The translations under genes and the position numbers were made by a program. A stretch of DNA of 64,000 bases from Procambarus clarkii (Eukaryota; Arthropoda; Malacostraca; Decapoda; Cambaridae). Positions 9,455-60,481 of this stretch are shown in pieces. The stretch spans positions 5,713,056 to 5,777,055 of the forward strand of contig NC_091188.1 in assembly GCF_040958095.1 (NCBI RefSeq), in the 5' to 3' direction. Under the pieces are notes generated by a model. The model searched no databases and was not told the DNA's origin. It was given only the letters and a program-made list of their open reading frames with translations. The stretch's first letter is position 1; each line of letters opens with the position of its first letter.

Positions 9455-10298
9455 ATGATGACTGGCTGGGTGACCTTCCTGGCGTGGGTGGTTGTGTTGC
9501 TGCTCTGTGACGCTCCCTCACCGGCTCTGTCTGGTAGCTACCCTAATGCATCTGTCCTCTTATATGTTGCCTTAATATAGCAACAAAAGTTGTAACCATA
9601 CGATATGCATCTGTTTTCAAATCTTACAAAAATTTATATTGTAATATTTCTAAATGTAGATTTACATTAGCTTTTCACCTTAACACTGATGTCTCCTGCT
9701 CCCAGACGAGCCGCAGGAGACCACAGGTGATCGCACTTGTCATCTCTCTCTTCCTTACAGAGAGCGTCGGGCGGCCGGGTGTTCCTGGAGGCGGCGCCAG
9801 GCTGCCCCCGGGCTATGATATTGCTGCTGCTGAAGGTGGATTTGATGCCCGATATCCGGGCGCGGTAATATCGCAGTGTCTTTCTTGTAGACATATATTA
9901 TTGATTATGATACAAGGGGGGGGGGGGTTAGCCCAATGTTTCTAGCACGAATCTTTTCTATGCTTTTAATGTTCTTCACTCGAGAAGAAAGATCAAAAAT
10001 AAACTCGCCAAAGTTCCTTTTACAATCTTATACTGTTTGCCGCTATACAGGAGCGTGAATGATGGACTGTAATGGAAAACACAAATGATGCTAGGTTAAA
10101 AATTTATTGCAATATCGCCTATGAAATTGATATTATTATTGTTATCATCTCCATGCACTATTAGTATGTTTAAGGATTTGATCTTTTCATGTGTGTTTAT
10201 TTTCTTTCCAGGGAGCGTTATTTAGTAATTCCGCTTGGAGACCTCAAATCAGGTATCCGCTATCCAGGCCATTCTTTCGGCCCTGGAACAGGGGCTAA
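9455..10298 (+). CDS. A1: three-exon secreted proline/arginine-rich peptide (family A)
   Basis: Coding exons are 9455-9533, 9761-9864 and 10212-10298, with GT-AG introns. Exon 1 (26 codons plus one base) is a signal peptide: MMTGWVTFLAW, then a Val/Leu core, ending SPALS. Exon 2 opens ESVGRPGVPGGGARLPPGY and ends DARYPGA. Exon 3 opens GALFSN and ends RPFFRPWNRG before TAA. The precursor has 89 residues, the predicted mature part about 63, with eight Arg, four acidic residues and no Cys. ATG at 9455 is used because it is first, but ATG at 9458 is equally possible. An acceptor-like CCACAG seven bases upstream suggests a 5' UTR intron. The 3' UTR holds a 17-bp minisatellite, with AATAAA at 10543 and 10553. 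It is the tail-to-tail partner of A2. By composition it is an antimicrobial-type effector, secreted; function is inferred and I cannot name a known family. Confidence 0.72.
9865..10050 (-). mobile_element. PLE fossil inside intron 2 of A1
   Basis: On the minus strand the intron aligns to the PLE copies at 34385-34545 and 56640-56815 (shared GTAGACATATATTA, the TCTAGCACGAAT-type segment, and AAACTC(G/T)CCAAA). The alignment runs up to and includes the GGTA of the exon-2 donor. Equivalent fossils are in A2 (18310-18493), A1' (37627-37815), A2' (about 43330-43508) and A1'' (60028-60215). Shared presence dates the insertion before the A gene duplications. Confidence 0.65.
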
Positions 10299-10304
10299 CT
10301 TCAC

Positions 10305-10470
10305 TTCACCTGGCTGATGGCGTCACCTGGCTGATGACGTCACCTGGCTGATGGCGTCACCTGGCTGATGGCGTCACCTGGCTGATGGCGTCACCTGGCT
10401 GATGGCGTCACCTGGCTGAGGGCATCACCTGGCTGATGGCGTCACCTGGCTGAGGACATCACCTGGATAA
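10305..10470 (+). repeat. 17-bp minisatellite in 3' UTR of A1
   Basis: Tandem copies of CACCTGGCTGATGGCGT start almost directly after the stop codon. The same array follows A2 (16900-17105, minus), A1' (38079-38292), A2' (42598-42905, minus) and A1'' (60490-60655). It would be transcribed if the AATAAA signals beyond it are used. Confidence 0.85.
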
Positions 10471-10542
10471 TGACATATACTCAACACTTGCGGAGTTCAG
10501 AACAAGCAAAACTCCTCCAACATTGCATTTTCTATATATATA

Positions 10543-10558
10543 AATAAAACATAATAAA
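10543..10558 (+). terminator. Candidate poly(A) signals of A1
   Basis: Two AATAAA hexamers ten bases apart, 245 nt after the A1 stop. The same pair follows A1' (38365, 38375) and A1'' (60725, 60735), and on the minus strand A2 (16815-16830) and A2' (42517-42532). Confidence 0.5.
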
Positions 10559-10614
10559 ACGATACATTTCCCGTTTCTTTATTTGTGGTGAAGGTGGACC
10601 TGCCGGAGGGCGCC

Positions 10615-14599: not shown

Positions 14600-14753
<154 letters not shown>

Positions 14754-16899: not shown

Positions 16900-17105
16900 T
16901 CATTAGCCAGGTGATGCCCTCAGCCAGGTGACGCCATTAGCCAGGTGACGCCATCAGCAAGGTGATGCCCTCAGCCAGGTGACGCTATTAGCCAGGTGAT
17001 GCCATCAGCCAGGTGACGTCATCAGTCAGGTGACTCCATCAGCCAGGTGACGCCATCAGCCAGGTGATGCCCTCAGCCATGTGACGCCATCAGCCAGGTG
17101 ACGTG
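16900..17105 (-). repeat. 17-bp minisatellite in 3' UTR of A2
   Basis: Reverse-complement units of the CACCTGGCTGATGGCGT repeat directly after the A2 stop. Poly(A) signals on the minus strand follow at 16830-16825 and 16820-16815. Confidence 0.85.
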
Positions 17106-17108: not shown

Positions 17109-18919
17109 TTAGCGTCTGTCCCAGCCCGGAAACCGTGGCGGAAACCTGATCCCTTTTCTGATTATAGGTCTTCTATTGTTACTGATGTCTGGCGAAAAAT
17201 ATACCGCTGCCTGGAAAGAAAATAAATACACATGAAAAGATCAAATCCTTGAACATACTAACAGTGCATGGAGATGATAATAATAATATCAATTTAAGGT
17301 GGCTTATTACGGGTTTCGTAAAAATTGTTCAATTTGTTTATAAATTTATTTATGAAATGGTTATAGAAAGGGCTGCAACTGGTCCAAGTTTCAGCATCAC
17401 AGCCTAAACAGAAAAGGAGAAAAAAAATATACAACGTATTATGCAACGAATTTTCAACATTTTCAAATAGTTTCAGGGAACACATGTGTCAACTAAAATC
17501 ATTTCTATAACACTCAGATATTAAATGTAGCACATAATAAAGGATTGTAGTGACCAGTTTTATCAAAAAAGTGTTTAGTGCAATAATATAATTATTCAAA
17601 GTTACCCTTCCAAAAATATGCAATATATGATGTTTATAAATTTTAAAAAAATCAACAAATGGACTTTGGACTAAAATGTCTCAATAGGTTTGTAGAAGGA
17701 CAAACTCTACATATAGGGTGTAATTTGCATGTAAATTGATTAATAAATGAAAGCTCTGAAGTACTTTGAAGGTGTAAATTACTTTCCAGAGTAAAATAAA
17801 GACCAAGTTCGGCCACCTGTAGCTGAGCTTGACTTCGACAGATTTTGTTCATAATTGGCACCCTTGCAGATAGGCATCCATTGAGCAAGGTGTGCAAGTT
17901 TCATGCAAATCCCTTGATAACAAACGAGAAAAAAAATTGGCAAAAAAAAAAAAAAAAAAAAAAAATTACATATAAATATATTGTACATACATATTACAAT
18001 TATTACAAGAGTTTGTGCTTCTACAGCACATAGTAGACATTTTAGTTGACACATGTGTTCCCTGAGATTATTTGAGAATGTTGAACATTCGTTGCATAAT
18101 ACGTTGTGTATTTTTTTTCTCCTTTTCTGTTTAGGGTGTGATGGTGAAACTTGGACCAGTTGCAGCCCTTTCTATAACCATTTCATAAAAAATTTATAAG
18201 CAAATTGAACAACTTTTAATTTATACTGATATGCCCCCTTAATAGGCGATATTTCAACAAATTTTTAACCTAGCATCATTTGTGTTTTCCTTACAGTCCA
18301 TCATTCACTCTCCTGTATAGCGGCAAACAGTATAAGATTGTAAAAGGAACTTTGGAGAGTTTATTTTTAAACTTCCTTCTCGAGTGAAGAACATTAAAAG
18401 CATAGAAAAGATTCGTGCTAGAAACATTGGGCTAACCCCCCCATGTATCATAGTCAATAATATATGTCTACAAGAAAGACACTGCAATATTACCACGCTC
18501 GGTCTGACGGCATCAACTCCACCTAAAATTTCAAAACCAGAATCGCTAGGGACCTGTCTGGCCAGCCTGGTGCCGCCTCCAGGAACACCCGGCCGCCCTA
18601 CCGTCTCTGTAAGGAAGAGAGAGAGAGAGAGATGACACGTACGATCAGCTGTATCTCCTGCGGCTCGTCTGGGAGCAGGAGACATCAGTGTTACGGTGAA
18701 AAGCTAATATAAATCTACATTTACCAATATTACAATAGCAATTTTTGTAAGATTTGAAAACAGATGTATATCGTATGGGTATAACTTTTGTTGCTATATT
18801 ACGGCAACATATAAGAGGACAGATGCATTAGGGTAGCTACCAGACAGAGCCGGTGAAGGAGCGCCACAGAGCAGCAACACAACCACCCACGCCAGGAAGG
18901 TCACCCAGCCAGTCATCAT
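17109..18919 (-). CDS. A2: three-exon secreted Arg/Pro-rich peptide (family A)
   Basis: Minus-strand exons are 18919-18841, 18606-18494 and 17210-17109. Exon 1 is the same signal peptide as A1 (ending GAPSPALS). Exon 2 opens ETVGRPGVPGGGTRLARQ and ends GGVDAVRPSV. Exon 3 opens AAVYFSPDISNNRRP, continues IIRKGIRFPPRF and ends PGWDRR before TAA. The precursor is 97 residues with about twelve basic and six acidic residues in the mature part and no Cys. All splice sites are GT-AG and the phases equal those of A1. Intron 2 is enlarged by a 941-bp TTAA-flanked transposon. It faces A1 tail to tail. ATG at 18919 or 18916 may start. Secreted antimicrobial-type effector by inference; also possible is a non-immune secreted peptide. 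Confidence 0.7.
17298..18238. mobile_element. Non-autonomous DNA transposon with about 200-bp TIRs and TTAA target duplication
   Basis: Inverted ends are about 17298-17500 and 18039-18238 (shared blocks include GAAATGGTTATAGAAAGGG and GACACATGTGTTCCC). TTAA flanks both sides (17294-17297, 18239-18242). The orthologous intron of A2' (about 43083-43105) has a single TTAA and no element, which confirms the boundaries and shows the insertion came after the units separated or was lost by exchange. TTAA targeting points to piggyBac or Kolobok type. The inside has poly-A and no transposase. Confidence 0.85.
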
Positions 18920-23535: not shown

Positions 23536-24649
23536 TCATCATCATCACCATAAAAGTCTATCTTTAATATTGTCATAAATACAAGTAATGTTTTGCACTT
23601 AAAGGATATGAAAATAAAACGACAATAGATGTTGTATAATGATATTGTTCATAATATTAATAATAACTAATTTTGGATCTTTGTCCACGTTGTATTTAAA
23701 ATCTGTTGGACAAAATGTAAGTTAGATCTACGCAACTTATGATGTGATGTGGAGTTAGGGCTTAGGCCTAAGCCAGGGGCCCAAAGTTGCTTGGGGGTCA
23801 TCCACTGCCTGGGGTCTTGAGTATTCCTCCCTGAAACATTAAGGGTAATCACACACACACACACAGTTTGTAATATTCGTACGACATGTCAAGAAATATT
23901 GTAGGTAAATATTGATTCCTCTTGCTATTCCCCCTCCCCCTTCTGTCAGCTGCCCTAAAGCTTCTGTCAGCCATGTCAGCTGACTCCTGCTGCCCCCAAG
24001 CTTCTGTCAGCTGATTCCTGCTGCTCCCAACCTTTTGTCAATCCGGTCAGCTGCCATAACCGGCTGGCACTCCTTGCATACCTCACTCGTCTCTCTATCA
24101 GATGTGTTCATCATCATCTTTTGCACTGAGGCGTCCGCGTCCAGGTTGTCCACCAAACTGGGCTTGTCTCGCCAGCCTGACGCCGCCTTCAAGAGCAGCC
24201 GGGCTCCCGAAGCTCTCGTAAGTGACGACAGAGGTGAGAAACACAACATGGGAGCTACTCATGTCAGTAGACATGAGTGATAATGGCTTGGTTATCTGCG
24301 AAAGAAGTAGTGAGAAGTTGTTAAACGAATCGAAAATGATAAATTCATTGAGTCCCCCCCCCCCCATGGACTCGCGAAATATTTATTGAGGGTCCTTAGA
24401 GAATGGAAAAATTAAACTTGTCAACTCTGGTTTTGGAGGATATGTAGTTTGAGAGCGAATAGAGTACAGTGTTCGTGGAGGACTGAGGATGTTTAACTTA
24501 TTTTAAGATGGATAGTTCATCTTGTTCGAACTATCGGACGATGACGTTAGTTTGACGTCAACTGTGGGAAATTGTTTAAATCAATAATAATAATAACAAA
24601 GTTTTTGGTATAAATCTTAAAAAATCAGAGATGCATAAAGTGTGGAAAG

Positions 24650-25134: not shown

Positions 25135-25577
25135 TGAAAACTCACACCCCAGAAGTGACTCGAACCCATACTCCCAGAAGCAACGCAACTGGTATGTACA
25201 AGACGCCTTAATCCACTTGACCATCACGACCGGACATAATGAGGTGATAGCCGAGGCTATATGAACCACCCCACCGCCGGCACTCGGATAGTTATCTTGG
25301 GCATAGCATTTTACCAAATCACCTCATTCTTTGGGGCACACGTGAGGAACACAAATGCGAACAAGCCTGAATGGTCCCCAGGACATATGCAACTGAAAAC
25401 TCACACCCCAGAAGTGACTCGAACCCATACTCCCAGAAGCAACGCAACTGGTATGTACAAGACGCCTTAATCCACTTGACCATCACGACCGGACATAATG
25501 AGGTGATAGCCGAGGCTATATGAACCACCCCACCGCCGGCACTCGGATAGTTATCTTGGGCATAGCATTTTACCAAT
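25132..25577 (-). repeat. Two tandem tRNA-derived SINE copies
   Basis: Copies 25132-25376 and 25377-25577 are almost identical to those at 2490-2960, with the B box in the complement of GACTCGAACC. They are bounded by (TA)n on both sides. Confidence 0.75.
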
Positions 25578-25748: not shown

Positions 25749-25899
25749 CAGGAGTATAAAACAGATGTCGATATACTACGGCAACATATAAGAGGACAGA
25801 GGCATTAGGGTAGCTACCAGACAGAGCCGGTGAGGGAGCGCCACAGCACAGCAACACAACCACCCACGCCAGGAAGGTCACCCAGCCAGCCATCATCCT

Positions 25900-30626: not shown

Positions 30627-35012
<4,386 letters not shown>

Positions 35013-35189: not shown

Positions 35190-36730
35190 TAGTTGTACAC
35201 ACCTAGTTGTATTCACCTAGTTGGGCTTACGGGGGAGGGGGTGAGCTTTTGCTCTTTGGTCTCGCCTCTCAATCGTCAATCAACTGATGTACAGATTCCT
35301 GAGACTACTGGGCTCTATTATATCACCACATCACTTCTAAGTGCATTCCATTTACTATCTACTCTGACACTGAACAAGTTCTTTCTAATGTCTCTGTGGT
35401 TTATTTGGGTACTCAGTTTCCGTCTGTGTCCCCGTATTCGCGTACTACCCGTGTTAAATAATCAAGCCTTGCCTACCCTGTCAATTCCCTTGAAAATTTT
35501 GTATGTGGTGATCATGTCTCCAAGGCTCTTCTGCCCTTTCCTCGTAACTCATGCCTCTTAGTTCTGGGACTAGCCTAGTGGCATACCACTAAACTTTTTC
35601 CAGCTTCGTCTTGTGCTTGACAAAGTACGGGCTCCATACTGAGACCACATACTTTAGGATTGGTCTTACATATGTGGTTTACTAGGTTCTGAAAGATTCC
35701 TTACACAGGTTTCTGAACGCAGTTCTGATGTTAGCAAGCCTCGCATTCGCCGCCGATGTTATTCTTTTGATGGAGGCTTTAGACGACAGGTTTGGCGTGA
35801 TATCAACTCCTAGATCTTTCTCTCTGTCCGTTTCGTGAAGGACTTTCGCTCCTATTCGGTATCCAGTGTCTGGCCTCTGATTTCCTCCACCCAGTTTCAT
35901 CACCTTACATTTACTTGGGTTGAACTTTAGTAACCATTTGTTGGATCATTCCTTCAGTTTCTCTAGGTCATCTTGTAGCCTTATACTATCTTCTTCTGGT
36001 TTAATAATCCTCATAATTTTTGCATCATCAGCAAACATTGAGAGGAACTAGTCTAATCATTCTTGGAGATCATTTACATGTATCAGAAACAGTATAGGTC
36101 TAAGGACTGAACCCTGTGGGACTCCATGGGTGACGCCTCGTCACTCCGAGACCTCACCCTCACAGTGACTCGCTGTCTTCTGTTGCCTAGGTTCTCCCTT
36201 ATCCAGTGGAGTACCTTCCCTTTCACGTCCAACCACTTTGGGTGGACAGTAGAGCGACGGTCTTGCTTCATGCAGGCCAGGGTTCAATCCCCGACCGTCC
36301 AAGTGGTTGGACACCATTCCTTACCCCGTCCCATCCCAAATTCTTATCCTGACCCCTTCCCAGTGCTATATGGTCATAATGGCTTGGCGCTTTCCCCTGA
36401 TAATTCTCTCTCTCTCTCCCGCCTGCATCTCCAGCTTGTGCACTAGTCTCTTATGAGGTACTGTGTCAAAGGCTCTCTTGCAATCCAAAAATATGCAGTC
36501 TGATCAGCCCTCTCTATCGTGCCTGATTTGTTTTGCCTGGTCATAGAATTCAATTAATAATTCAATTAGTACTGTGCCTCCTGACTATCACCCTTCATTT
36601 ATAATCGGACTACATTGGCCGTCTTCCACATTTTTGGCAGTTCACCTGTTACTAATGATTTGTTGTACACCATTAATAGTGGCAGGTACAGAGCTTCTAC
36701 TCCTTTCTTTAGTATCCATGGTGAGATTCC
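35190..36730 (-). repeat. LINE reverse-transcriptase remnant, unit 2 copy
   Basis: Orthologue of 7360-9075 with the FADD box kept, MKLGGGNQRPDTGYRIG and ITSAANARLANIRTAFRN visible on the minus strand, and a deletion near 36560 that removes the MMEKIVRKKL region present in the other two units. It contains the nested SINE at 36232-36418. Confidence 0.8.
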
Positions 36731-37123
36731 ATCCGGCGCCACAGGTCCTATGAGGTTGACGTGATTTTGTTTTGCATCATAGGTGTTATAAGGTTGAGGT
36801 GCTCACATCTCACAATTGAGGGATCACAGACTACATAATGAACGTCTCATTCCTTAGTCGGGGAATACTTGAACAGACCAAGAGCTGGGACATGATGACG
36901 AAGTACCAACACCGGATGAACGGTACCAACCCTCTTGCACCATTGGGGAATCGAACACCGATCTTACAACAATCGAGGCAATGACTCTACTGACCATGGT
37001 GGCATCTGTGATAAATTAATGAATTTCACCTGATTATTACTCACACTACATAAGATCATTTTCTTAAATATCTCTGATTCTTTTATATTATCTGACTCAT
37101 ATAAATGATTCCACAGGTGAAGG

Positions 37124-38088
37124 ATGATGGCTGGCTGGGTGACCTTCCTGGCGTGGGTGGTTGTGTTGCTGCTCTGTGGCGCTCCCTCACCGGCTGTGTC
37201 TGGTAGCTACCCTAATGCCTCTGTCCTCTTATATGTTGCCGTAATATAGCAACAAAAGTTATAACCATACGATATGCATATGTTTTCAAATCTTACAAAA
37301 ATTGCTATTGTAATATTGGTAAATGTAGATTTATATTAGCTTTTCACCGTAACCTTTTCCGTAACACTGATGTTAACACTGATGTCTCCTGCTCCCAGAC
37401 GAGCCGCAGGAGACCACAGGTGATCGTACGTGTCATCTCTCTCTCTCTCTTCCTTACAGAGAGCGTCGGGCGGCCGGGTGTTCCTGGAGGCGGCGCCAGG
37501 CTGGCCAGACACGCCCAGATCAGTGGTGCACGCCGTCGTTTTGGTGATCCTCATCTTTTTGATCCACCAGATGATCCACCAGATGATTGTTATAGAGGTG
37601 GAGATGATGCCTGCAAACCGAGCGCGGTAATATCGCAGTGTCTTTCTTGTAGACATATATTACTGACTATGATACAAGGGGGGGGGGGTTAGCCCAATGT
37701 TTCTAGCACGAATCTTTTCTTTGCTTTTAATGTTATTCACTTGAGAAGGAAGTTTAAAAATAAACTCTCCAAAGTTCATTTTACAATCTTATACTGTTTG
37801 CCGCTATACAGGAGAGTGAATGATGGACTGTAATGGAAACACAAATGATGATAGGTAAAAAAAAATTTGAAATATCCCCTGTTAAACTGATATTATCATT
37901 ATCATCTCCATGCACTGTTAGTATGTATAAGGATTTGATCTTTTCATGTGTGTTTATTTTCTTTCCAGGGAGCGTTAATTAGTTTTTGGCCAGGCAGCAG
38001 TAACAATACAGGACCTCCAATCAGCTTTGGGCCCAGGTTTCCGCCATGGTTTACTTCCTGGTACAGGGACTACACGTCACCTGGCTGA
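37124..38088 (+). CDS. A1': three-exon secreted peptide with acidic insert and two Cys (family A)
   Basis: Exons are 37124-37202, 37460-37626 and 37969-38088. The signal exon reads MMAGWVTFLAW to SPAVS. Exon 2 opens ESVGRPGVPGGGARLARH, continues ISGARRRFGDPHLF, then a Pro-Asp stretch (DPPDDPPDD) made by a 12-bp direct repeat, then CYRGGDDACKPSA with two Cys. Exon 3 opens GALISFWPGSSNNTGPP, continues ISFGPRFPPW and ends WYRDYTSPG. A 4-bp deletion relative to A1 and A1'' removes the usual stop, so the last residues come from the start of the 17-bp minisatellite. The precursor is 121 residues and the mature part nearly charge-neutral, unlike its paralogues. The Asp-rich part might be a propeptide segment (inference). 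Poly(A) signals are at 38365 and 38375. Confidence 0.7.
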
Positions 38089-38439
38089 TGGCTTCACCTG
38101 GCTGATGGCGTCACCTGGCTGGTAACGTCACCTGGCTGGTGGCGTCACCTCGCTGGTAACGTCACCTGGCTGGTGGCGTCACCTGGCTGCTGGCGTCACC
38201 TCGCTGGTGACGTCACCTAGCTGGTGACGTCACCTGCCTGATGGCGTCACCTGGCTGATGGCGTCACCTGGCTGAGGGCATCACCTGGCTAATGACATAT
38301 ACTCAACACTTGCGGAGTTCAGAACAAACAAAACTCCTCCAACATTGCATTTTCTATAGATATAAATAAAACATAATAAAACGATACATTTCTCGTTTCT
38401 TTATTTGTTGTGAAGGTGGACCTGCCGGAGGGCGCCGCT

Positions 38440-40325
38440 GTTTGGCCAGTGTACTGTTGTTAGGCCAGAGTACTGTTGATTGGCCAGAGTACTGTTGATA
38501 GCCCAGAGTACTCTTGTTAGGCCAGAGTACTGTTGTTAGGCCAGAGTTCTATTGTTAGGCCAGAGTACTGTTGTTAGGCCAGAGTACTGTTGTTAGGCCG
38601 GAGTACTGTTGTTAGGCCAGAGTACTGTTGTTAGGCCAGAGTACTGTTGATAGGCCAGAGTACTGTTGTTAGGCCGGAGTACTATTGTTAGGCCAGAGTA
38701 CTGTTGTTAGGCCAGAGTACTGTTGTTAGGCCGGAGTACTGTTGTTAGGCCAGAGTACTGTTGTTAGGCCAGAGTACTGTTGATAGGCCAGAGAACTGTT
38801 GTTTGGGCCGAAGTATTGTTGATAGGCAAGAGTACTGTTGATAGCCCAGAGTACTGTTGATAGCCAAGAGTACTGTTGATAGGCCAGAGTACTGTTGTTA
38901 GGCCAGAGTACTGTTGATAGGCCAGAGTACTGTTGATAGCCCAGAGTACTTTTGATAGGCCAGAATACTGTTGTTAGGCTGAAGTACTGTTGATAGGCCA
39001 GAATACTGTTGATAGCCAAGAGTACTTGTGATAGGCCAGAGTACTGTTGTTAGGCCGAAGTACTGATGATAGCCCAGAGTACTGTTGATAGGCCAGAGTA
39101 CTGTTGTTAGGGCCGAAGTATTGTTGATAGGCCAGAGTACTGTTGTTAGGCCAGAGTACTGTTGATAGGCCAGAGTACTGTTGTTAGGCCAGAGTACTGT
39201 TGATAGGCAAGAGTACTGTTGTTAGGCCAGAGAACTGTTGATAGGCCAAAGTACTGTTGATAGCCCAGAGTACTGTTGATAGGCCAGAGTACTGTTGATA
39301 GCCCAGAGTACTGTTCATAGCCCAGAGTACTTTTGATAGGCCAGAGTACTGTTGTTAGGCCGAAGTACTGTTGATAGGCCATAGTACTGTTGTTAGGCCG
39401 AAGTACTGTTGATAGGCCAGAGTACTGTTGATAGCCCAGAGTACTGTTGATAGCCCAGAGTACTTTTGATAGGCCAGAGTACTGTTGTTAGGCCAGAGTA
39501 CTGTTGTTAGGCCAGAGTACTGTTGATAGGCCAGAGTACTGTTGTTAGGGCCGAAGTATTGTTGATAGGCAAGAGTACTGTTGATAGCCCAGAGTACTGT
39601 TGATAGCCAAGAGTACTGTTGATAGGCCAGAGTACTGTTGTTAGGCCAGAGTACTGTTGATAGGCCAGAGTACTGTTGATAGCCCAGAGTACTTTTGATA
39701 GGCCAGAATACTGTTGTTAGGCCGAAGTACTGTTGATAGGCCTGAGTACTGTTGATAGCCAAGAGTACTTTTGATAGGCCAGAGTACTGTTGTTAGGCCG
39801 AAGTACTGTTGATAGCCCAGAGTACTGTTGATAGGCCAGAGTACTGTTGTTAGGGCCGAAGTATTGTTGATAGGCCAGAGTACTGTTGTTAGGCCAGAGT
39901 ACTGTTGATAGGCCAGAGTACTGTTGTTAGGCCAGAGTACTGTTGATAGGCAAGAGTACTGTTGTTAGGCCAGAGTACTGTTGATAGGCCAGAGTACTGT
40001 TGATAGCCCAGAGTACTGTTGATAGGCCAGAGTACTGTTGATAGCCCAGAGTACTGTTCATAGCCCAGAGTACTTTTGATAGGCCAGAGTACTGTTGCTA
40101 GGCCGAAGTACTGTTGATAGGTCAGAGTACTGTTGTTAGGCCGAAGTACTGTTGATAGGCCAGAGTACTGTTGATAGCCCAGAGTACTGTTGATAGCCCA
40201 GAGTACTTTTGATAGGCCAGAGTACTGTTGCTAGGCCGAAGTACTGTTGATAGGCCAGAGTACTGTTGTTAGGCCGAAGTACTGTTGACAGGCCAGAGTA
40301 CTGTTGTTACGCCAGAGTACTGAAT
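38440..40325 (+). repeat. Expanded 19-bp minisatellite in unit 2
   Basis: About 100 units of GTTGATAGGCCAGAGTACT type with internal higher-order repetition (a block of about 0.74 kb is repeated). Units 1 and 3 have about 12 units at this position. Confidence 0.93.
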
Positions 40326-42460: not shown

Positions 42461-42905
42461 GGCGCCCTCCGGCAGGTCCACCTTCACAACAAATAAAGAA
42501 ACGGGAAATGTATCGTTTTATTATGTTTTATTTATATATATAGAAAATGCAATGTTGGAGGAGTTTTGCTTGTTCTGAACTCCGCAAGTGTTGAGCATAT
42601 GTCATTAGCCAGGTGACGTCAGGTGATGCCATCAGACAGGTGACGCCATCAGCCAGGTGACGCCATCAGCCTGGTGACGCCATTAGCCAGGTGACGCCAT
42701 CAGCCTGGTGACGCCATTAGCCAGGTGATGCCCTCAGCCAGGTGACGCCATTAGCCAGGTGATGCCATCAGCCAGGTGACGTCATCAGTCAGGTGACTCC
42801 ATCAGCCAGGTGACGCCATCAGCCAGGTGACGCCATCAGCCTGGTGACGCCATTAGCCAGGTGATGCCCTCAGCCATGTGACGCCATCAGCCAGGTGACG
42901 TGAAG

Positions 42906-45097
42906 TTAGCCTCTGTGCCGGGACGGTAACCGTGGCGGAAACCTGGGCCCTTTTCTGATTATAGGTCTTCTATTGTTACTGATGTCTGGCGAAAAATATA
43001 CCGCTCCCTGGAAAGAAAATAAACACACATGAAAAGATCAAATCCCCAAACATACTAACAGTGCATGGAGATGATAATAATAATAATATCAATTTAATAG
43101 GCGATATTTCAACAAATTTTTAACCTAGCATCATTTGTGTTTTCCTTACAGTCCATCATTCACTCTCTTGTATAGCGGCAAACAGTATAAGATTGTAAAA
43201 GGAACTTTGGAGAGTTTAATTTTGAACTTCCTTCTCGAGTGAAGAACATTAAAAGCATAGATATCACCTAGCAAAACCTAGCATCATTTGTGTTTTCCTT
43301 ACAGTCCATCATTCACTCTCTTGTATAGCGGCAAACAGTATAAGATTGTAAAAGGAACTTTGGAGAGTTTAATTTTGAACTTCCTTCTCGAGTGAAGAAC
43401 ATTAAAAGCATAGAAAAGATTCGTGCTAGAAACATTGGGCTAACCCCCCCCCCCCCCTTGTATCATAGTCAATAATATATGTCTACAAGAAAGACATTGC
43501 AATATTACCGTGCTCGGTTCGCAGGCTCTATGTCCACCAATAATTCCAGAAACACCTGGTGAACAATGTGGATCACGATGGCGTGGACCACCGATCGGGA
43601 CCCGTCTGGCCCGCCTGGCGCCGCCTCCAGGAACACCCGGCCGCCCTACCTTCTCTGTAAGGAAGAGAGAGAGAGAGAGATCACACGTACGATCACCTTT
43701 TGATTGTTGCCGCCGAAGGCGGCTAGTTTATTGTGCACCCCATACTCATCCTGTGAGCGGTAGCGCAAAAGCATTACAGAGGGCACAAAAGGTCTTTATC
43801 AGACCTCATCTTAGATTATTACATAAACAATTTCTTCAATCCTTCACACCTTATAGATACAATGTCAGCTAGTTACAGAGAAAGTGCTATTACAAGAGCT
43901 ACATATTTACAGTAAGTCATCATACATTAATGGTAGGTCTTGTCGTTAATACATAATAGTTTGGCCAATGGGGATATTACAGAGTCATAGGGAAGCTTCT
44001 GTTTATTATTAGTCCTCACAATACACTACTTGTTTCTGAATCTCATATGTCGTTCATCTACTGGAAGCAAAATGTGGGTACAGTGCAAGGATTTCAGGTA
44101 ATTTATCCATGGTAATAAGATAGGTTGCCATATCATACAGAGTGAGCTTAGATTTATCTCTAAAAGGCTCAATTTTACAACAATCCAAGATATAGTGTTC
44201 GAGTGTGTGTCCCTGCCTATGTCCACACACTTTACACTTTACTTCATCTAGATCCCTATACAAGCCGAACTGCCAGAGATACTTGTAGCCAAGTCTTATA
44301 CGAGCTGTGACAACATCTGTTAGTCTGCTGACTTTGTTACTTGCCCCATACACATGTTTTACTTCACACATTTCATTGTGATGAACAATGGACCTACTAG
44401 TTCCAGTTTGCACTGTTCTTCTTTCTTCAAATCCATCTAGGAGTTCTCGTCTAATGACACTTTTAAGGGACCTATTTGATAACTCAAGATTCCATTCAAT
44501 ACTGTCTTTATTTACTGCAGCCTTAGCAAGGGCGTCAACTTTGTCATGTTCCTGCATGCCAATGTGAGAAGGAATCCACAACATTTTTATATTTACCCTC
44601 TTGCTAAGTATTCTTACATATCTACGTCTACCTTCCAAGACAAGCACGTTATTACTTGATTGCAAACTGTTTATTGCTCGTAGTGAGGATAGGGAGTCAG
44701 AAATAATTAAGCTGTCTACTTCAGTGTTGTCAATAATTTCGAGTGCTACCAGTATCGCTACCAACTCGGCTTGCATTGTGGACGCCCAGTTACTAATTCG
44801 GATATTACGATCACCTGTATCTCCTGCGGCTCGTCTGGGAGCAGGAGACATCAGTGTTAACATCAGTGTTACGGTGAAAAGCTAATATAAATCTACATTT
44901 ACTAATATTACAATAGCAATTTTTGTAAGATTTGAAAACAGATGCATATCGTATGGTTATAACTTTTGTTGCTATATTACGGCAACATATAAGAGGACAG
45001 ATGCATTAGGGTAGCTACCAGACAGAGCCGGTGAGGGAGCGCCACAGAGCAGCAACACAACCACCCACGCCAGGAAGGTCACCCAGCCAGTCATCAT
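42906..45097 (-). CDS. A2': three-exon secreted, strongly cationic peptide (family A)
   Basis: Minus-strand exons are 45097-45019, 43654-43509 and 43007-42906. The signal exon is the same as in A2. Exon 2 opens EKVGRPGVPGGGARRARR, continues VPIGGPRHRDPHC and ends GGHRACEPST, with two Cys 14 residues apart. Exon 3 opens GAVYFSPDISNNRRP, continues IIRKGPRFPPRL and ends PSRHRG. The precursor is 108 residues, the mature part has about 17 basic and four acidic residues, the most basic of the family. Intron 1 is enlarged by a 1.1-kb LINE end with a 10-bp target duplication; intron 2 has a local duplication. Splice sites are GT-AG and phases match. Tail-to-tail with A1'. Antimicrobial-type effector by inference. 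Confidence 0.7.
43098..43430 (-). repeat. Local tandem duplication in intron 2 of A2'
   Basis: About 150 bp (ACCTAGCATCATTTGTG to TTAAAAGCATAGA) occurs twice, at about 43120-43262 and 43277-43418. The other A genes have it once. Confidence 0.8.
43699..44806 (-). mobile_element. 5'-truncated LINE end with RNase H, in intron 1 of A2'
   Basis: On the minus strand about 250 codons are open: an RNase H domain with AELVAILVALEIID, IISDSLSSLRAI and MLWIPSHIGMQEHDKVDALA (the D...D...H...D pattern), then a zinc-knuckle-like tail CKVCGHRQGHTLEHYILDCC. A 3' UTR follows with a short CCGCC/GGCGG hairpin. It is flanked by the direct repeat ACGATCACCT (43689-43698, 44807-44816). Absence from the A2 intron shows a recent insertion. 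Non-LTR element of a clade that carries RNase H. Confidence 0.85.
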
Positions 45098-48355: not shown

Positions 48356-48423
48356 AGGAGTATAAAACAGATGTCGATATACTACGGCAACATATAAGAG
48401 AACAGATGCATTAGGGTAGCTAC

Positions 48424-48502
48424 CAGACAGAGCCGGTGAGGGAGCGCCACAGAGCAGCAACACAGCCACCCACGCCAGGAAGGTCACCCAGCCAGTCATC
48501 AT
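48424..48502 (-). pseudogene. A3': isolated signal-peptide exon of a family-A gene
   Basis: MMTGWVTFLAWVAVLLLC to SPALS with an intact donor. No exon 2 or 3 follows on this strand: the sequence downstream jumps at about 48350 to the spacer, so the interval holding the exon relics in unit 1 (22681-25745) is missing. It is therefore a gene fragment. Confidence 0.7.
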
Positions 48503-53066: not shown

Positions 53067-53865
53067 ATGGCTGGCACCAAGACCTGCCTAATGCTGGTGG
53101 TGCTGGTGCTCTCTCTCTGCTGGACGCCCTCGCTCCTTGAAGCGAGTGAGTATATGTGATCAATATTTCATCTCATTTTAAGCTCTGTGTTAGTGTGCAT
53201 TTTTTTCTGTCTCTCAGTCACATTAAATGATCCAGTGTGTCTGTGCTTGCGTGAGCACATGCTCAAGAAAGTACAGACAGTGTGTGTGTGAGCTGTTTAC
53301 ACACACTGTGTGAGCAAGCTCAGTGTGTTTTTATTATAGTTAATCAACACCCCCCCCCTCTCTATTAAGTTAACAATGAAAATTTAACAAATCAGTTCTT
53401 TACCATCTTTACATGTATCTGTGTATAAATTTGATTATAACTTTAAGTTTTTTCTATATAGAAAAACAGCAGATTTTCCTTCTTAAGAACCCTTTTACTC
53501 ATCCCATCATGATAGAGTAAAACGAGCTGCATTTTCTTCAATGTTTTTGCGAGCTGTAAAGGATAAGTTGTTCTGAATATGTAGATCAAGAAATTAGTGT
53601 CATATATCGTATAGGCTCTATTACAAAACTCCCTTAAATAAAATTGGTTCACTTCACCATTCAACTGACTGGGCTAATTCATGTACATCTGTTATTTCAA
53701 TAAATTTCTTTAAATCGTTGAATAAAAATTAAAAATTTAATTTAATAATATAAATTTAATTCCAGAAATGTATATATTAGACAGCTTCATATTGATCAGA
53801 ATTGCTATATGTATAAAATTATGGAAATATGAACATAAGAATAGATGAAACTGCAGAAAATCTAG

Positions 53866-53962: not shown

Positions 53963-54709
53963 GAATGTCTTCACGAACAGGAAGCTTGGCCTCATTCAGG
54001 AACGTGTACAGGGTCAGAGGAGGACATAACGCCAACAGACCCCTCACGGTAATGTAGACAGCATACGTTGTCATATATTTGTTCTTATATGTCACATATA
54101 AACATAAATACACATCAGGAAACATGTGAGAACATTAGATCCACAAGGAAGCGAGGATACTTATGGGTGATGCTAGCAGGAACCCAACTGTTTATGCTGT
54201 ATGGGTGTTCTCACCGACTGTTTATGCTGTATGGGTGTTCTCACCGACTGTTTATGCTGTATGGGTGTTCTCACCGACTGTTTATGCTGTATGGGTGTTC
54301 TCACCGACTGTTAATGTTGTATGGGTGTTCTCACCGACTGTTTATGCTGTATGGGTGTTCTCATCGACTGTTTATGTTGTATGGGTGTTCTCACCCAACT
54401 GTTTATGCTGTATGAGTGTTCTCACTGAGTATTTATACTGTACTGTTATTATCACCCAACTATTTTGGGAGTAAATAAACGGCAACCAACAGACAGGCCA
54501 GATAAACAAGGACGAGGAGTAGGTAAAATAATTGCTGAACTGAAACCATTTTTTTCTTATTTTTTTATTTACTTTTTTATGAATTTACTGTTTAGAGTGA
54601 CGAAATAAGACTTCCTTTACCCATTTTGCAGGGATCGTTGATAGCTGGGAACAGAAATAGGCCTCCACCGCCTGTGAGGTTTGGTAACAGATTCTGGCGA
54701 GGCAGATGA
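53067..54709 (+). CDS. B3: three-exon secreted cationic peptide (family B)
   Basis: Exons are 53067-53145, 53981-54048 and 54632-54709, GT-AG. The signal exon reads [16 protein letters not shown] to PSLLEA; the split codon gives Arg. Exon 2 opens [16 protein letters not shown] and ends ANRPLT; exon 3 opens [14 protein letters not shown] and ends [10 protein letters not shown]. The precursor is 74 residues; the mature part has 11 Arg and no acidic residue or Cys. Against B2, exon 2 differs by three residues with no silent change, and exon 3 by nine. Exon 3 is identical to B1. A candidate 5' UTR acceptor CTCCACAG precedes the ATG. The first AATAAA of the paralogues is mutated here; the next is at 54865. 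Antimicrobial-type secreted effector by inference. Confidence 0.78.
54183..54463 (+). repeat. 30-bp minisatellite in intron 2 of B3
   Basis: About nine copies of the unit seen in B1 and B2. Confidence 0.9.
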
Positions 54710-56534
54710 AGCCTTGATCAACACTGTCGTCGATGTTAACACTCAGGAAGAGTTTCACCTCCAGATGTGAATTAACTTAGAGAAAGTTTTCTGTTAAGTT
54801 TATGTACAATTGCTAATGAACGTTTTCATACTATATCAGGAAAAAATTCGCCATATGTACTTGAAATAAATTAAATTATAAGGATTTTTCTGTATAATGT
54901 TTGTACCTCTCTACACTTTATCCAGCAAACAATTAGTTTTTTTATCATTAATGTAAGCTGAAGTTCGCATGATCAACTGTGTTATTACTAAAGGTTGAGA
55001 ATGTTCCGCTTATGCTCAAGACTGACCACCCCTGCAGCTGTGGTCTTTAACTGAAACGAGAAGGTTGATTTGCATCACAAAATGTGCGTTTAATACAAGA
55101 CTTCATATAATTTTGGCATCATCGGCAAACATTGAGAGCAATACGTCTATATCCTTTGGAAGATCGTTTACATATATCAGAAACAAGATGGGTTCAAGTA
55201 CAGAGCCCTGTGCGACTCCGCTGGTGACATCTTGACACTCTGAGGTCTTCCCCACTCACAGTAACTCTGTGTTTTTGTTGCTACGATACTCCCTTATCCA
55301 CTGGAGCTCCTGACCTGTTATTCAAGTCTGTTTTTTTCCAACTTCTGTACCAGCCTCATATGGGTATTGTGTCAAAGGCTTTCTGGCAGCCTAAGAAAAT
55401 GCAGTTTGCCCACATCTTTCTTTCTGGTCATATTTTTATCATAAAATTTTCTTAAACCTGTGAGGCATGATAATCCCTGAACCTATGCTGGTGGTGTGTT
55501 ACAAAGTTCCTCTCTAGATGTTCTACGAGCTTTTTCCTCACGATTTTTCTTTTCACAATCTTTCAAATCTTTCCTACTTAACAGAACAACAACAATCTGG
55601 CCAGTTAGAACCCGGGGTGGGGAATATATAAGGGTTTTGCCCCGTGAAGATTCCCCAACAGGATGTACACATATAACAGTTGCCAGTCTCTTAAAATGAA
55701 TATATAAGAACAGATCGGGAGACCCTATGCACTTGCCCACGTAACGCTGGTGAGTGCGTATACGCTCACGCAAGTAACGCGGTTGAGTGCATATACGCTC
55801 ACGCAAACACTAAAGACTGCAGACGAACCAGAAAACTACTGCTTTAAACTCCAAAGAGGTAAAAATAATAATTTTATGCAAATTTACTACATATTCTTTT
55901 TGCAAATATTAAGCATAACTCTATTAAATAATTTTGGTCTAATTTTGCCTTTGTCTTCATACCAAGATTTTCAATTTTGTAATTATTTTTAAGTTCTTCA
56001 TAAGAATGTGACGGCCTATGGGGAGGGGGGGGGTAGATCCCTGACGTCACTATATTCTGGTGGCATGTGTGGAGTGATCTCTCTGACGTCTATGTTGTAG
56101 AGACGTGTAAAATATACATTTATATATAAAATTGTACATTGGAGTCGATTTACAAGTTTGGATTTAGCTTACTTTTGTATCAAAATATCAAATTCTTGTT
56201 GAAACCTGGTTCGTTCTTAGGAACCTTCTGTATTGATTAACGGTATATAAGATTACACTATAACTGTTTTTTTAGAAATTATAAAATCGAAATAAACCAC
56301 TGTAGGGTTAAAACAACAGAATGAATTTTTCGGTTGTATTTTACGACTAAAATATATATATACGTCCAACGAAAAAAAATTGCATTTGCAAGTATGTTCT
56401 TTACACTGTAAACACATGACCTGATATTGATGTGTCTGAAATTCAGAACTAGCCATATTATTTTTAATATTATATAATGGCGAATCAAAAACCTGTGTGT
56501 GTATATATATGTAATATATATATATACATATATA

Positions 56535-56540
<6 letters not shown>
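54710..56540. other. 3' UTR of B3 and spacer with LINE fragment
   Basis: Minus-strand LINE fragment at 55090-55530. The rest matches 33190-34262 closely and 1426-2370 less closely. No gene. Confidence 0.6.
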
Positions 56541-56630
<90 letters not shown>

Positions 56631-56639
56631 AACTTTCAG

Positions 56640-57285
56640 GCTTGTTCGCATATATATATTATTATATTTTGGTAGCAGTCTTTCCTGTAGACATATATTA
56701 TTAAATATGACCGAAAAAGTAAGATTAATAATTCTAACACGAATTTTCTCAATCTTTCGTACATTTCTTTTCACTGTTGGTGGTAATTCAAAAATCAATT
56801 CTCCAAAATTCATTTTTATTTCTAGTCTGACGCGACACTTGAGCGCATTTCGTAAAACTTATTACATTTTTAAAGACTTTAGCTACACATACACAACTGA
56901 ATAGAACTTACACATCTCCGATTTGTTTATATCTACATTTGAGTGAGGTGGATGGGGTGAGATGGTATTTAATAGGGTATTAATTTCATCAACACAAGAC
57001 AGAACACGAAACAATGGGTATTGAATAGAAGTGATTGTAGAACGCCTATTGGTCCATATATCTTGATGCTTCTATATTGGAGCGGAGTCTTGAGGTGGGT
57101 AGAATATAGTTGTGCATTAATTGGCTGTTGATTGCTGGTGTTGACTTTTTAATGTGTAGTGCCTCGCAAACGTCAAGCCGTCTGCTATCGCTGTATCTAT
57201 CGATGATTTCTGTGTTGTTTACTAGGATTTCTCTGGCGATGGTTTGGTTGTGGGAAGAGATTTCTACTAGGATTTCTCTCTTCAT
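56640..57285 (-). mobile_element. Penelope-like element fragment, unit 3
   Basis: Same structure as 34385-35012: end of a GIY-YIG-like part (SDSRRLDVCEALHIKKSTPA), non-coding segment, then [20 protein letters not shown]. Shared position with unit 2 but not unit 1. Confidence 0.6.
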
Positions 57286-57459
57286 CTAGTCATCTAGTTA
57301 CTGGCGAGATGCCACACACACCACTCACCAGTAAGTGAGTGGTGTTTGTTGTTGTTGTTAAAGATTCGCTACCTGGAACAAAAAGTTCCAAGTAGCACGG
57401 GCTATGGTGAGCCCGTCTGAGTGGTGTGTGTGTGTGTGAGTACTCACGTAGTTGTACTC

Positions 57460-59115
57460 GCCTAGTTGTACACACCTAGTTGTATTCACCTAGTTGGGCT
57501 TACGGGGGAGGGGGGTGAGCTTTTGCTCTTTGGTCTCGCCTCTCAATCGTCAATCAACTGATGTACAGATTCCTGAGGCTACTGGGCTCTATTATATCAC
57601 CACATCACTTCTAAGTGCATTCCCTTTACTATCTACTCTGACACTGAACAAGTTCATTCTAATGTCTCTGTGGTTTATTTGGGTACTCAGTTTCCGTCTG
57701 TGTACCCTTATTCGCGTACTACCCATGTTAAATAATCAAGCCTTGCCTACCCTGTCAATTCCCTTAAAAATTTTGTATGTGGTGATCATGTCTCCAAGGC
57801 TCTTCTGCCCTTTCCTCGTAACTCATGCCTCTTAGTTCTGGGACTAGCCTAGTGGCATACCACTAAACTTTTTCCAGCTTCGTCTTGTGCTTGACAAAGT
57901 ACGGGCTCCATACTGAGACCACATACTTTAGGATTGGTCTTACATATGTGGTTTACTAGGTTCTGAAAGATTCCTTACACAGGTTTCTGAACGCAGTTCT
58001 GATGTTAGCAAGCCTCGCATTCGCCGCCGATGTTATTCTTTTGATGGAGGCTTTAGACGACAGGTTTGGCGTGATATCAACTCCTAGATCTTTCTCTCTG
58101 TCCGTTTCGTGAAGGACTTTCGCTCCTATTCGGTATCCAGTGTCTGGCCTCTGATTTCCTCCACCCAGTTTCATCACCTTACATTTACTTGGGTTGAACT
58201 TTAGTAACCATTTGTTGGATCATTCCTTCAGTTTCTCTAGGTCATCTTGTAGCCTTATACTATCTTCTTCTGGTTTAATCATCCTCATAATTTTTGCATC
58301 ATCAGCAAACATTGAGAGGAACTAGTCTAATCATTCTTGGAGATCATTTACATGTATCAGAAACAGTATATATCTAAGGACTGAACCCTGTGGGACTCCA
58401 CGGGTGACGCCTCGTCACTCCGAGACCTCACCCTCACAGTGACTCGCTGTCTTCTGTTGCCTAGGTTCTCCCTTATCCAGTGGAGTACCTTCCCTTTCAC
58501 GTCCAACCACTTTGGGTGGACAGTAGAGCGACGGTCTTGCTTCATGCAGGCCAGGGTTCAATCCCCGACCGTCCAAGTGGTTGGACACCATTCCTTACCC
58601 CGTCCCATCCCAAATTCTTATCCTGACCCCTTCCCAGGGCCATATGGTCATAATGGCTTGGCGCTTTCCCCTGATAATTCTCTCTCTCTCTCCCGCCTGC
58701 ATCTCCAGCTTGTGCACTAGTCTCTTATGAGGTACTGTGTCAAAGGCTCTCTTGCAATCCAAAAATATGCAGTCTGATCAGCCCTCTCTATCGTGCCTGA
58801 TTTGTTTTGCCTGGTCATAGAATTCAATTAATCCTGTGAGGCATGATTTACCATTCCTGAACCGATGCTTCTGTTGTGTTACAAAGTTCTTTCGCTCCAA
58901 ATGTTCCACTAATTTTTTTTCGCACAATCTTCTCCATCATCCTGCATGGTATGCAAGTTAGGGACACTTCCCTGTAGTACTGTGCCTCCTGACTATCACC
59001 CTTCATTTATAATCGGACTACATTGGCCGTCTTCCACATTTTTGGCAGTTCACCTGTTACTAATGATTTGTTGTACACCATTAATAATGGCAGGTACAGA
59101 GCTTCTACTCCTTTC
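57460..59115 (-). repeat. LINE reverse-transcriptase remnant, unit 3 copy
   Basis: Orthologue of 7360-9075 with the N-terminal part kept and the nested SINE at 58492-58690. Motifs MKLGGGNQRPDTGYRIG and ITSAANARLANIRTAFRN are visible. Confidence 0.8.
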
Positions 59116-59224
59116 TTTAGTATCCATGGTGAGATTCCATCCGGCGCCACAGGTCCTATGAGGTTGACGTGATTTTGTTTTGCATCATAGGTGTTATAAG
59201 GTTGAGGTGCTCACATCTCACAAT

Positions 59225-59415
59225 TGAGGGATCACAGACTACATAATGAACGTCTCATTCCTTAGTCGGGGAATACTTGAACAGACCAAGAGCTGGGACA
59301 TGATGACGAAGTACCAACACCGGATGAACGGTACCAACCCTTTTGCACCATTGGGGAATCGAACACCGATCTTACAACAATCGAGGCAATGACTCTACTG
59401 ACCATGGTGGCATCA
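59225..59415 (-). repeat. SINE upstream of A1''
   Basis: Same tRNA-derived SINE as upstream of every other complete A gene, with the complement of GTTCGATTCCCC. Confidence 0.65.
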
Positions 59416-59531
59416 GTGATAAATTAATGAATTTCACCTGATTATTACTCACACTACATAAGATCATTTTCTTAAATATCTCTGATTCTATTATATTACC
59501 TGACTCATATAAATGATTCCACAGGTGAAGG

Positions 59532-60481
59532 ATGATGACTGGCTGGGTGACCTTCCTGGCGTGGGTGGTTGTGTTGCTGCTCTGTGGCGCTCCCTCACCG
59601 GCTCTGTCTGGTAGCTACCCTAATGCATCTGTCCTCTTATATGTTGCCGTAATATAGCAACAAAAGTTATAACCATACGATATGCATCTGTTTTCAAATC
59701 TTACAAAAAGTGCTAATGTAATATTAGTAAATGTAGATTTATATTAGCTTTCACCGTAACCTTCTCTATAACACCGATGTTAACACTGATGTCTCCTGCT
59801 CCCAGACGAGCCGCAGGAGATACAGGTGATCGTACGTGTCATCTCTCTCTCTCTCTCTCTTCCTTACAGAGAAGGTAGGGCGGCCAGGAATTCCTGGAGG
59901 CGGCGCCAGGCGGGCCAGACACGCCCAGATCAGTGGTGCACGCCGTCGTTCTGATGATCCTCATCTTTTGTATAAAAATAGTATTAGTTGTATTAGAGGT
60001 GGAGATGATGCCTGCGAACCGATCGCGGTAATATTGCAGTGTCTTTCTTGTAGACATATATTATTGACTATAATACAAGGAGGGGGGTTGTCCCAATGTT
60101 TCTAGCACGAATCTTTTCTATGCTTTTAATGTTCTTCACTAGAGAAGGAAGTTAAAAAATAAACTCTCCAAAGTTCCTTTTACAATCTTATACTGTTTGC
60201 CGCTATACAAGAGAGTGAATGATGGACTGTAAGGAAAACACAAATGATGCTAGGTTAAAAATTTGTTGAAATATCGCCTACTAAATTGATATTATTATTA
60301 TTATCATCTCCATGCACTGTTAGTATGTTTGGGGATTTGATCTTTTCATGTGTGTTTATTTTCTTTCCAGGGAGCGGCATTTACTTTGAAGTTAGACAAT
60401 GAGCCTGTTCGGATACCTCCAATCAGGTTTGGGCCCAGTACTCCATCCAGGCCAAGGTTTCCGTTGTGGCACTGGGACTAA
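59532..60481 (+). CDS. A1'': three-exon secreted peptide with two Cys (family A)
   Basis: Exons are 59532-59610, 59870-60027 and 60371-60481, GT-AG. The signal exon equals A1 except GAP for DAP. Exon 2 opens EKVGRPGIPGGGARRARH, continues ISGARRRSDDPHLL and ends SCIRGGDDACEPIA with two Cys eight residues apart. Exon 3 opens GAAFTLKLDNEPVRIPP, continues IRFGPSTPSRPRF and ends PLWHWD before TAA. The precursor is 115 residues, with about 14 basic and nine acidic residues after the signal. Exon 2 resembles A1' of unit 2, while intron 2 and the 3' UTR resemble A1 of unit 1, so the gene lies on an exchange boundary. Poly(A) signals are at 60725 and 60735. Role inferred as for A1. Confidence 0.72.

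What the first reader, a model, noticed from the sequence alone, without database searches (positions are those of the whole stretch)
9455..60481. Cluster of cryptic three-exon secreted peptide genes resembling antimicrobial peptides
Ten loci in 64 kb: six complete or apparently complete A/B genes besides B1 exon 3, A3 and A3' relics, plus B3. Each gene has coding exons of 68 to 167 bp, too short for ordinary ORF calling. The signal-peptide exon, precise GT-AG sites, shared phases and Arg/Pro/Gly-rich mature parts recur in every copy. The profile fits linear crustacean antimicrobial peptides such as arasin- or astacidin-type peptides, but I recognise no named family.
Basis: partly seen in the sequence, partly recalled or inferred. 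Interest (0 to 1): 0.92.

Follow-up and report, generated by a model that had tools for sequence, protein, structure and literature searches.

The report
Fast-evolving secreted peptide gene cluster
A stretch of what looks like crayfish or lobster DNA holds a repeated array of small split genes whose export tag is nearly identical from copy to copy while the peptide they would release has been rewritten fast, the pattern of an immune weapon in an arms race.

Summary
The window holds ten loci of one gene family: seven with a full precursor (A1, A2, A4, A5, A7, B2, B3), two relics (A3, A6) and one cut by the window edge (B1). All seven have a 79-nt signal exon, a phase-1 and a phase-0 intron, GT-AG sites, a downstream polyadenylation signal, and a GGxxAxxP motif at one fixed distance before exon 3. 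A and B are homologous. The loci form a repeating module (B+, A+, A-, A-relic-) of roughly 22-32 kb that probably continues past the window.

Between A copies, signal exon, introns and upstream flank are about 89-100% identical, but mature-peptide exons only 58-91%; these change length in whole codons and show dN > dS in 10 of 10 pairs (three tested, p < 0.01). This is the mark of diversifying selection on a secreted peptide, as in conotoxins, and argues strongly against inert repeats.

Antimicrobial function is the best guess but inferred. Membership in arasins or astacidins fails (no PRP motif, no four-cysteine domain, no significant alignment). Pfam, and protein searches in a database that does hold Cherax proteins, gave no relative. 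Expression, cleavage and activity are untested.

The parts
514..591 (+). B1 exon 3 (stop included); rest of the gene would lie beyond the left window edge
   Evidence: same exon-3 peptide as B3
9455..9533 (+). A1 exon 1 (signal peptide)
9761..9864 (+). A1 exon 2
10212..10298 (+). A1 exon 3 with stop
   Evidence: poly(A) signal 244 nt after the stop
18841..18919 (-). A2 exon 1
18494..18606 (-). A2 exon 2
17109..17210 (-). A2 exon 3 with stop; intron 2 is 1283 nt, about 0.9 kb longer than in A1, A4 and A7
25818..25896 (-). A3 exon 1 of a relic gene; a decayed exon-2-like stretch lies at 24173-24216
30627..30705 (+). B2 exon 1 (signal peptide)
31524..31591 (+). B2 exon 2
32290..32367 (+). B2 exon 3 with stop
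37124..37202 (+). A4 exon 1
37460..37626 (+). A4 exon 2
37969..38088 (+). A4 exon 3; reads into the 17-bp minisatellite, which supplies the stop
   Evidence: minisatellite from 38075
45019..45097 (-). A5 exon 1
43509..43654 (-). A5 exon 2
42906..43007 (-). A5 exon 3 with stop
48424..48502 (-). A6 exon 1 only (relic; the match to A1 ends at 48372)
53067..53145 (+). B3 exon 1
53981..54048 (+). B3 exon 2
54632..54709 (+). B3 exon 3 with stop
59532..59610 (+). A7 exon 1
59870..60027 (+). A7 exon 2
60371..60481 (+). A7 exon 3 with stop

Best explanation
A tandem array of paralogous genes for small secreted host-defence peptides of a decapod crustacean. Each gene would be spliced from three coding exons, probably with an upstream non-coding exon, since an acceptor-like CCACAG lies 6-7 nt before the ATG of A1 and B2. 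Exon 1 supplies a conserved signal peptide, removed near the exon 1/2 junction. Exons 2 and 3 supply a 48-95 residue product. The end of exon 2 carries a fixed GGxxAxxP motif, and exon 3, Arg/Pro/aromatic-rich in most copies, is the variable business end. It most likely binds and disables microbes by charge, possibly acting inside the cell as proline-rich peptides do. The module keeps duplicating, introns and leader stay alike, and the mature exons are driven apart by diversifying selection, so each copy presents a different effector. Shown from sequence: gene structure, homology of A and B, module duplication, exon-confined divergence, dN > dS. Inferred: expression, secretion, cleavage, antimicrobial action.
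For: Same 79-nt signal exon, phases 1/0, GT-AG sites and a poly(A) signal in 7 of 7 full genes. GG..A..P at the same distance before the exon 2/3 junction in 7 of 7. A-B homology: 0-4 of 1000 shuffles reach the full-precursor score in 10 of 10 A-B pairs; on mature parts 0-3 in 7 of 10 pairs and 16, 23 and 32 in the other three. Mature exons 58-91% identical, against exon 1 at 96-100%, measured introns at 92-97% and the 206 nt upstream at 89-98%. Exon-3 divergence exceeds every 80-column upstream or intron window in 3 of 3 plus-strand pairs. Mature dN > dS in 10 of 10 pairs; A2-A5 omega 4.9; Fisher p 0.004-0.008 in the three of ten pairs tested. Net charge +4 to +13 in 6 of 7 mature parts. Relic copies beside intact ones.
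Against: No transcript, peptide or activity data. A4 has net charge 0 and a DDPPDD stretch; whole-mature Pro is only 6-16%. Seven of the ten omega values are only 1.2-1.9, were not tested, and rest on alignments with long gaps; dS in those seven pairs (0.19-0.46) is well above intron divergence, so selection on point changes is not the whole story. In B2-B3 exon 2 is no more diverged than the introns. No relative was found that would tie the family to immunity.
Confidence: 0.6

Rival explanations
1. Rapidly evolving secreted peptides with a non-immune role: seminal or egg-coat peptides, pheromones or glandular secretions driven by sexual conflict or signalling. The same leader-conserved, mature-hypervariable pattern would follow.
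For: Diversifying selection and tandem duplication do not by themselves identify immunity. A4 is not cationic. No known antimicrobial family matches.
Against: Six of seven mature parts are clearly cationic, and exon 3 is Arg/Pro/aromatic-rich in most copies, as in many defence peptides.
Confidence: 0.22
2. Processed regulatory peptides (neuropeptide-like precursors) cut at the RR/RRR sites of exon 2.
For: Runs of Arg occur in exon 2 of A4, A5 and A7.
Against: The sites and intervening peptides are not conserved between copies, and neuropeptides are normally the conserved part of their precursors (recalled), the reverse of what is seen.
Confidence: 0.06
3. Non-functional repeats: the open frames are chance by-products of a duplicating repeat-rich segment.
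For: The segment is full of minisatellites and retroelement pieces; 142 of 2007 non-coding window-frames are also open in three copies and 392 of 669 windows also keep length mod 3; two copies are relics.
Against: Divergence is concentrated in the exons (p below 1e-17 in 3 of 3 pairs), with nonsynonymous excess; leader, splice sites and the GG..A..P motif are kept in 7 of 7 full copies.
Confidence: 0.04
4. The mature exons differ because introns and leader are homogenised by gene conversion while old, divergent exon lineages are kept or exchanged between cassettes, with selection secondary.
For: A5 and A7 have identical exon 1 (79 of 79) and identical last 85 nt of intron 2, yet differ at 37 of 102 aligned exon-3 sites; A5 and A2 differ at 4 of 69 anchored intron sites and 9 of 102 exon-3 sites (Fisher p 0.003). 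Synonymous sites are more diverged than introns in seven pairs.
Against: In the pair aligned without gaps in exon 3 (A2-A5) mature dS is 0.05 and dN 0.27, with intron parts about 0.02 diverged. The 5' part of intron 2 does not show the A5-A7 affinity (A2-A5 0.978, A5-A7 0.964). This rival concerns the route of diversification and can be true together with the best explanation.
Confidence: 0.3

Closest known systems
Conotoxin gene superfamilies (PMC3862624, passages seen, parts of the abstract among them)
   Same: Three exons (roughly signal, pro, mature) and two introns in most superfamilies, introns conserved within a superfamily, many more point changes and trinucleotide indels in the mature-peptide exon.
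   Different: Conotoxins are venom peptides of cone snails, cysteine-framework in type (recalled); here 0 or 2 cysteines, a crustacean-like genome, introns of about 0.2-1.4 kb instead of over 3 kb.
Myticalins of mussels (PMC5577615, passages seen)
   Same: Linear cationic, multigenic, conserved signal peptide, hypervariable mature region, pseudogenes; an intron directly before the ATG, as the acceptor-like site here suggests.
   Different: Myticalins carry a conserved anionic C-terminal extension after a dibasic site, and signal and mature parts share one exon; here the C-terminus is the variable part and lies on its own exon.
Astacidins of crayfish (PMC11678341 and PMC11767717, passages seen)
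   Same: Short linear Arg/Pro-containing peptides of crayfish.
   Different: No PRP motif, longer mature part, no significant alignment to astacidin 2.
Arasins (PMC11678341 and PMC11767717, passages seen)
   Same: Cationic, secreted, decapod, an Arg/Pro-rich segment.
   Different: Arasins have an N-terminal Pro/Arg-rich region and a C-terminal four-cysteine region; here the Arg/Pro-rich part is C-terminal and there are 0 or 2 cysteines.

Membership tests
[quoted passage not shown]
   0 cysteines in A1, A2, B2, B3 and 2 in A4, A5, A7; definition from PMC11767717 passage
Arasin | Sequence similarity to arasin 1 | tested here: not met
   236-495 of 500 shuffles reach the score, 7 of 7 mature parts
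Astacidin | Short Arg/Pro peptide with PRP motifs as in astacidin 2 | tested here: not met
   PRP absent from 7 of 7; 29 of 500 shuffles reach the score for A1, 108-402 for the other six. The P. clarkii PcAst sequences could not be read
Proline-rich AMP (Box 1 of PMC7736402) | At least 25% proline | tested here: inconclusive
   Whole mature part 6-16% in 7 of 7; a 14-40 residue stretch with at least 25% Pro and charge of at least +1 exists in 6 of 7 (all but B2), but the processed form is unknown. Of six known peptides tried, bovine Bac5 gives the lowest shuffle counts: 10-356 of 500 (A7 10, A1 and A2 20)
Proline-rich AMP (Box 1 of PMC7736402) | Net charge of at least +1 | tested here: met
   6 of 7 mature parts; A4 is 0
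Proline-rich AMP (Box 1 of PMC7736402) | Antimicrobial activity and intracellular target (DnaK and/or 70S ribosome) | not testable with these tools
   needs peptide assays
Crustins, penaeidins and other Pfam-covered families | Recognisable domain | tested here: not met
   0 Pfam families at E up to 10 for 7 of 7 precursors (HMMER filters drop most matches above about 0.1); penaeidin-1 alignment 106-461 of 500 shuffles
Leader-conserved, mature-hypervariable secreted peptide arrays (the kind) | Conserved signal exon, conserved introns, mature exons with dN > dS and in-frame indels, multiple copies | tested here: met
Leader-conserved, mature-hypervariable secreted peptide arrays (the kind) | Expressed and secreted | not testable with these tools
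   no transcript or peptide data available here

The most novel reading that the evidence does not exclude
A previously undescribed crustacean effector system in which a multi-gene module is amplified as a unit and the mature-peptide exons are diversified by a process that spares the flanking introns, such as exon exchange between cassettes combined with conversion of introns and leader, giving each individual or population its own peptide repertoire.
Probability: 0.2. Interest if true: 0.8.

Novelty: new member of a known kind. Interest (0 to 1): 0.52.

Why it matters
Exons of 68-167 nt with no recognisable relative are easily missed by gene prediction, so such arrays may be under-counted in decapod genomes. 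If confirmed, this is a new family of crayfish or lobster host-defence peptides and a compact natural experiment. Several near-identical cassettes side by side, differing mostly in the exons that encode the product, make the question of how venom- and defence-peptide genes diversify exons faster than introns directly testable within one species.

Tried and rejected
Rejected: arasin or astacidin membership; a known Pfam family; a solved-structure relative (B3 only; 6 chains at E up to 10, best E 0.8 to an unrelated enzyme); chance open frames.

Considered and set aside: inclusion of a conserved 20-21 nt stretch upstream of exon 2 (A1: 9706-9726). By my reading of the sequence it would keep frame in A1 and A4 only and would leave an intron of just 34 nt in A1; reading through from that site gives different frames in A1 and A2.

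Led nowhere: the own-genome search, which would have shown how far the array runs, did not complete (9 tries, listed below). The protein searches with A5 and B3 found nothing at E up to 1 (14 and 3 candidates); they reach only relatives sharing 5-residue words and only these two of seven precursors were sent, so the null is soft, though the database holds Cherax proteins. Literature: six peptide words anywhere in the text, 0 papers; all of six terms for crayfish AMP gene clusters, 0 papers; all of four terms for crayfish genome AMP expansions, 0 papers. The other listings (18 papers, 11, 5, 13, 12 of 23) were seen as titles and abstract starts only, except the seven papers whose passages I looked at. 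PMC9774249 and PMC8155518 passages added nothing that I used. Library coverage excludes most subscription journals, so absence from print is not established.

Corrected on the way: a first comparison of the last 85 nt of intron 2 gave A5-A2 10 differences because of an unaligned 3-nt shift; anchored it is 4 of 69. In one search a '13' coding gap is the edge of A4's 15-nt extension past the other stops. A '13' gap between A1 and A2 is two abutting gaps with a net difference of 9. B mature counts include the last signal residue (49 instead of 48).
Full report
What is there. Blast of A1 pieces against the window finds seven copies of a 79-nt exon coding MM(T/A)GWVTFLAWV(V/A)VLL(L/C)C(D/G)APSPA(L/V)S. 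A hydrophobic-start scan and exon-3 searches add a second type, [23 protein letters not shown], at 30627 and 53067, and a B exon 3 at 514. Motif-anchored splicing gives full precursors of 89, 97, 121, 108 and 115 residues for A1, A2, A4, A5 and A7 and 74 residues for B2 and B3. In all seven, exon 1 is 79 nt, intron 1 is phase 1, intron 2 is phase 0, the sites are GT-AG, and AATAAA or ATTAAA lies 133-383 nt after the stop. A3 keeps exon 1 and a degraded exon-2-like stretch; A6 keeps exon 1 only.

Array. Self-comparison shows large direct repeats at about 90-98% identity (for example 33835-36558 with 56112-58832, 98.3%; 7339-8756 with 35145-36558, 97.6%; 36567-38666 with 58975-61026, 89.7%) and inverted pieces. 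In order the loci read B1+, A1+, A2-, A3-; B2+, A4+, A5-, A6-; B3+, A7+, window end. So the unit of duplication looks like a four-gene module, with corresponding genes 22-32 kb apart. It probably continues past both ends, since B1 is cut on the left and the window stops soon after A7. The extent outside the window could not be checked (own-genome search unanswered in 9 tries).

A and B are one family. Local alignment of full precursors beats nearly all shuffles (0-4 of 1000 in 10 of 10 pairs; on mature parts 0-3 in seven pairs, and 16, 32 and 23 for A1-B3, A2-B2 and A2-B3). The end of exon 2 reads GG..A..P plus two residues before the junction in 7 of 7, a fixed island in an otherwise fluid product. 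Exon 3 starts with GAL or a close variant, and a PP.(S/R)FG core is present in A4, A7 and B3, but not strictly in the other four. A genes carry an extra N-terminal E.VGRPG(V/I)PGGG segment.

Selection. Between A copies exon 1 is 96-100% identical, the upstream 206 nt 89-98%, and the introns that could be aligned 92-97%; exon 2 is 67-84% and exon 3 58-91% (intron 1 of A5 and intron 2 of A2 were left out there because of insertions, and partial values for all five genes are). In the plus-strand trio (A1, A4, A7) exon-3 divergence is 0.29-0.36 against a maximum of 0.10-0.175 in any 80-column window of upstream or intron sequence; exon 2 exceeds that maximum in two of three pairs (0.231 and 0.308; A4-A7 is 0.165 against 0.175). 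The 3' region, which holds the minisatellite, was not among those windows; it diverges 0.03-0.09 overall, with single 40-column windows up to 0.20. In B2-B3 only exon 3 is raised (12 of 78, against 4 of 68 in exon 2 and 4-6% in introns). Nei-Gojobori counts from my own script give mature dN > dS in 10 of 10 A pairs; pooled pN is 0.32 and pS 0.21, against 0.02 and 0.02 in the leader. Clear omega values are A2-A5 4.9, A2-A4 3.3 and A4-A5 2.8; Fisher tests, run on these three of ten pairs because their alignments are the least ambiguous, give p 0.0039, 0.0038 and 0.0075. The other seven pairs have omega 1.2-1.9 and were not tested. Pairs are not independent. Length differences in exons are whole codons; introns show 1, 2, 4, 8 and 10-nt gaps as well as multiples of three (3, 6, 24, 153).

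A further twist. The last 85 nt of intron 2 and the whole of exon 1 are identical between A5 and A7, yet 37 of 102 aligned exon-3 sites differ; for A5-A2 the counts are 4 of 69 and 9 of 102. Across 10 of 10 pairs the anchored 69 nt before exon 3 differ at 0-4 sites. Together with synonymous divergence above intron divergence in seven pairs, this suggests that introns are being homogenised, or that exon cassettes move, in addition to selection. It is suggestive only: the 5' part of intron 2 puts A5 slightly nearer A2 than A7.

What organism. A retroelement fragment in A5 intron 1 (frame 44054-44881, minus; its first residues are still A5 intron) has RNase H similarity (E 2e-5, 25.1 bits, just under Pfam's 25.8). 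This fits a crayfish- or lobster-like decapod other than Cherax; the species is not established.

What it does. Secretion rests on the hydrophobic start and leader conservation; I had no SignalP. Charge is +4 to +13 in six of seven mature parts, 0 in A4; cysteines 0 or 2; PRP absent in 7 of 7. Pfam has no family. Protein searches with A5 and B3 gave no hit. Of six known peptides compared, only bovine Bac5 comes near for several copies (10-356 of 500 shuffles), which may reflect composition alone. Antimicrobial action is therefore inferred from composition and mode of evolution. Conotoxins show the same genomic pattern (PMC3862624) and myticalins the same hypervariable design (PMC5577615). I file it as a new family of a known kind: confidence about 0.9 that these are real genes under diversifying selection, and 0.6 that the products are antimicrobial.

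Noticed in passing
44054-44881 (minus), inside intron 1 of A5: Retroelement fragment with RNase H similarity; its four best named relatives are Cherax quadricarinatus proteins. It sits between A5 exon 1 and exon 2, so the gene may still splice across it.
   Followed up: partly
9879-10021, 18342-18479, 37641-37782, 43350-43494, 60042-60181 (antisense in A intron 2); related copies at 34378-34542, 56652-56816, 4154-4318: Intron 2 of the A genes contains, antisense, an eroded copy of an [18 protein letters not shown] coding piece that also occurs elsewhere in each module, probably from a dispersed element.
   Followed up: partly
10306-10466, 16901-17103, 38075-38294, 42620-42900, 60487-60654: A 17-bp minisatellite (TCACCTGGCTGATGGCG) starts within a few bases of the stop codon in 5 of 5 full A genes; in A4 the frame runs into it and takes its stop from it.
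   Followed up: partly
9706-9726 and the same place in A2, A4, A5, A7: Conserved stretch with an acceptor-like and, except in A2, a donor-like edge (cagACGAGCCGCAGGAG...ACAG), 21 nt in A1 and A4 but 20 nt in A2, A5 and A7; a possible micro-exon or splice decoy (read by eye).
   Followed up: partly
43122-43414: 153-bp perfect tandem duplication inside intron 2 of A5.
   Followed up: no
63257-63327 (plus): tRNA-like gene, called tRNA-Thr (CGT) by ARAGORN and tRNA by Rfam.
   Followed up: no
25176-25540 (minus): Repeated unit with tRNA-like A and B boxes (GTCAAGTGGATTAAGG, GGGTTCGAGTC), probably a tRNA-derived SINE beside relic A3 (sequence; box motifs recalled).
   Followed up: no
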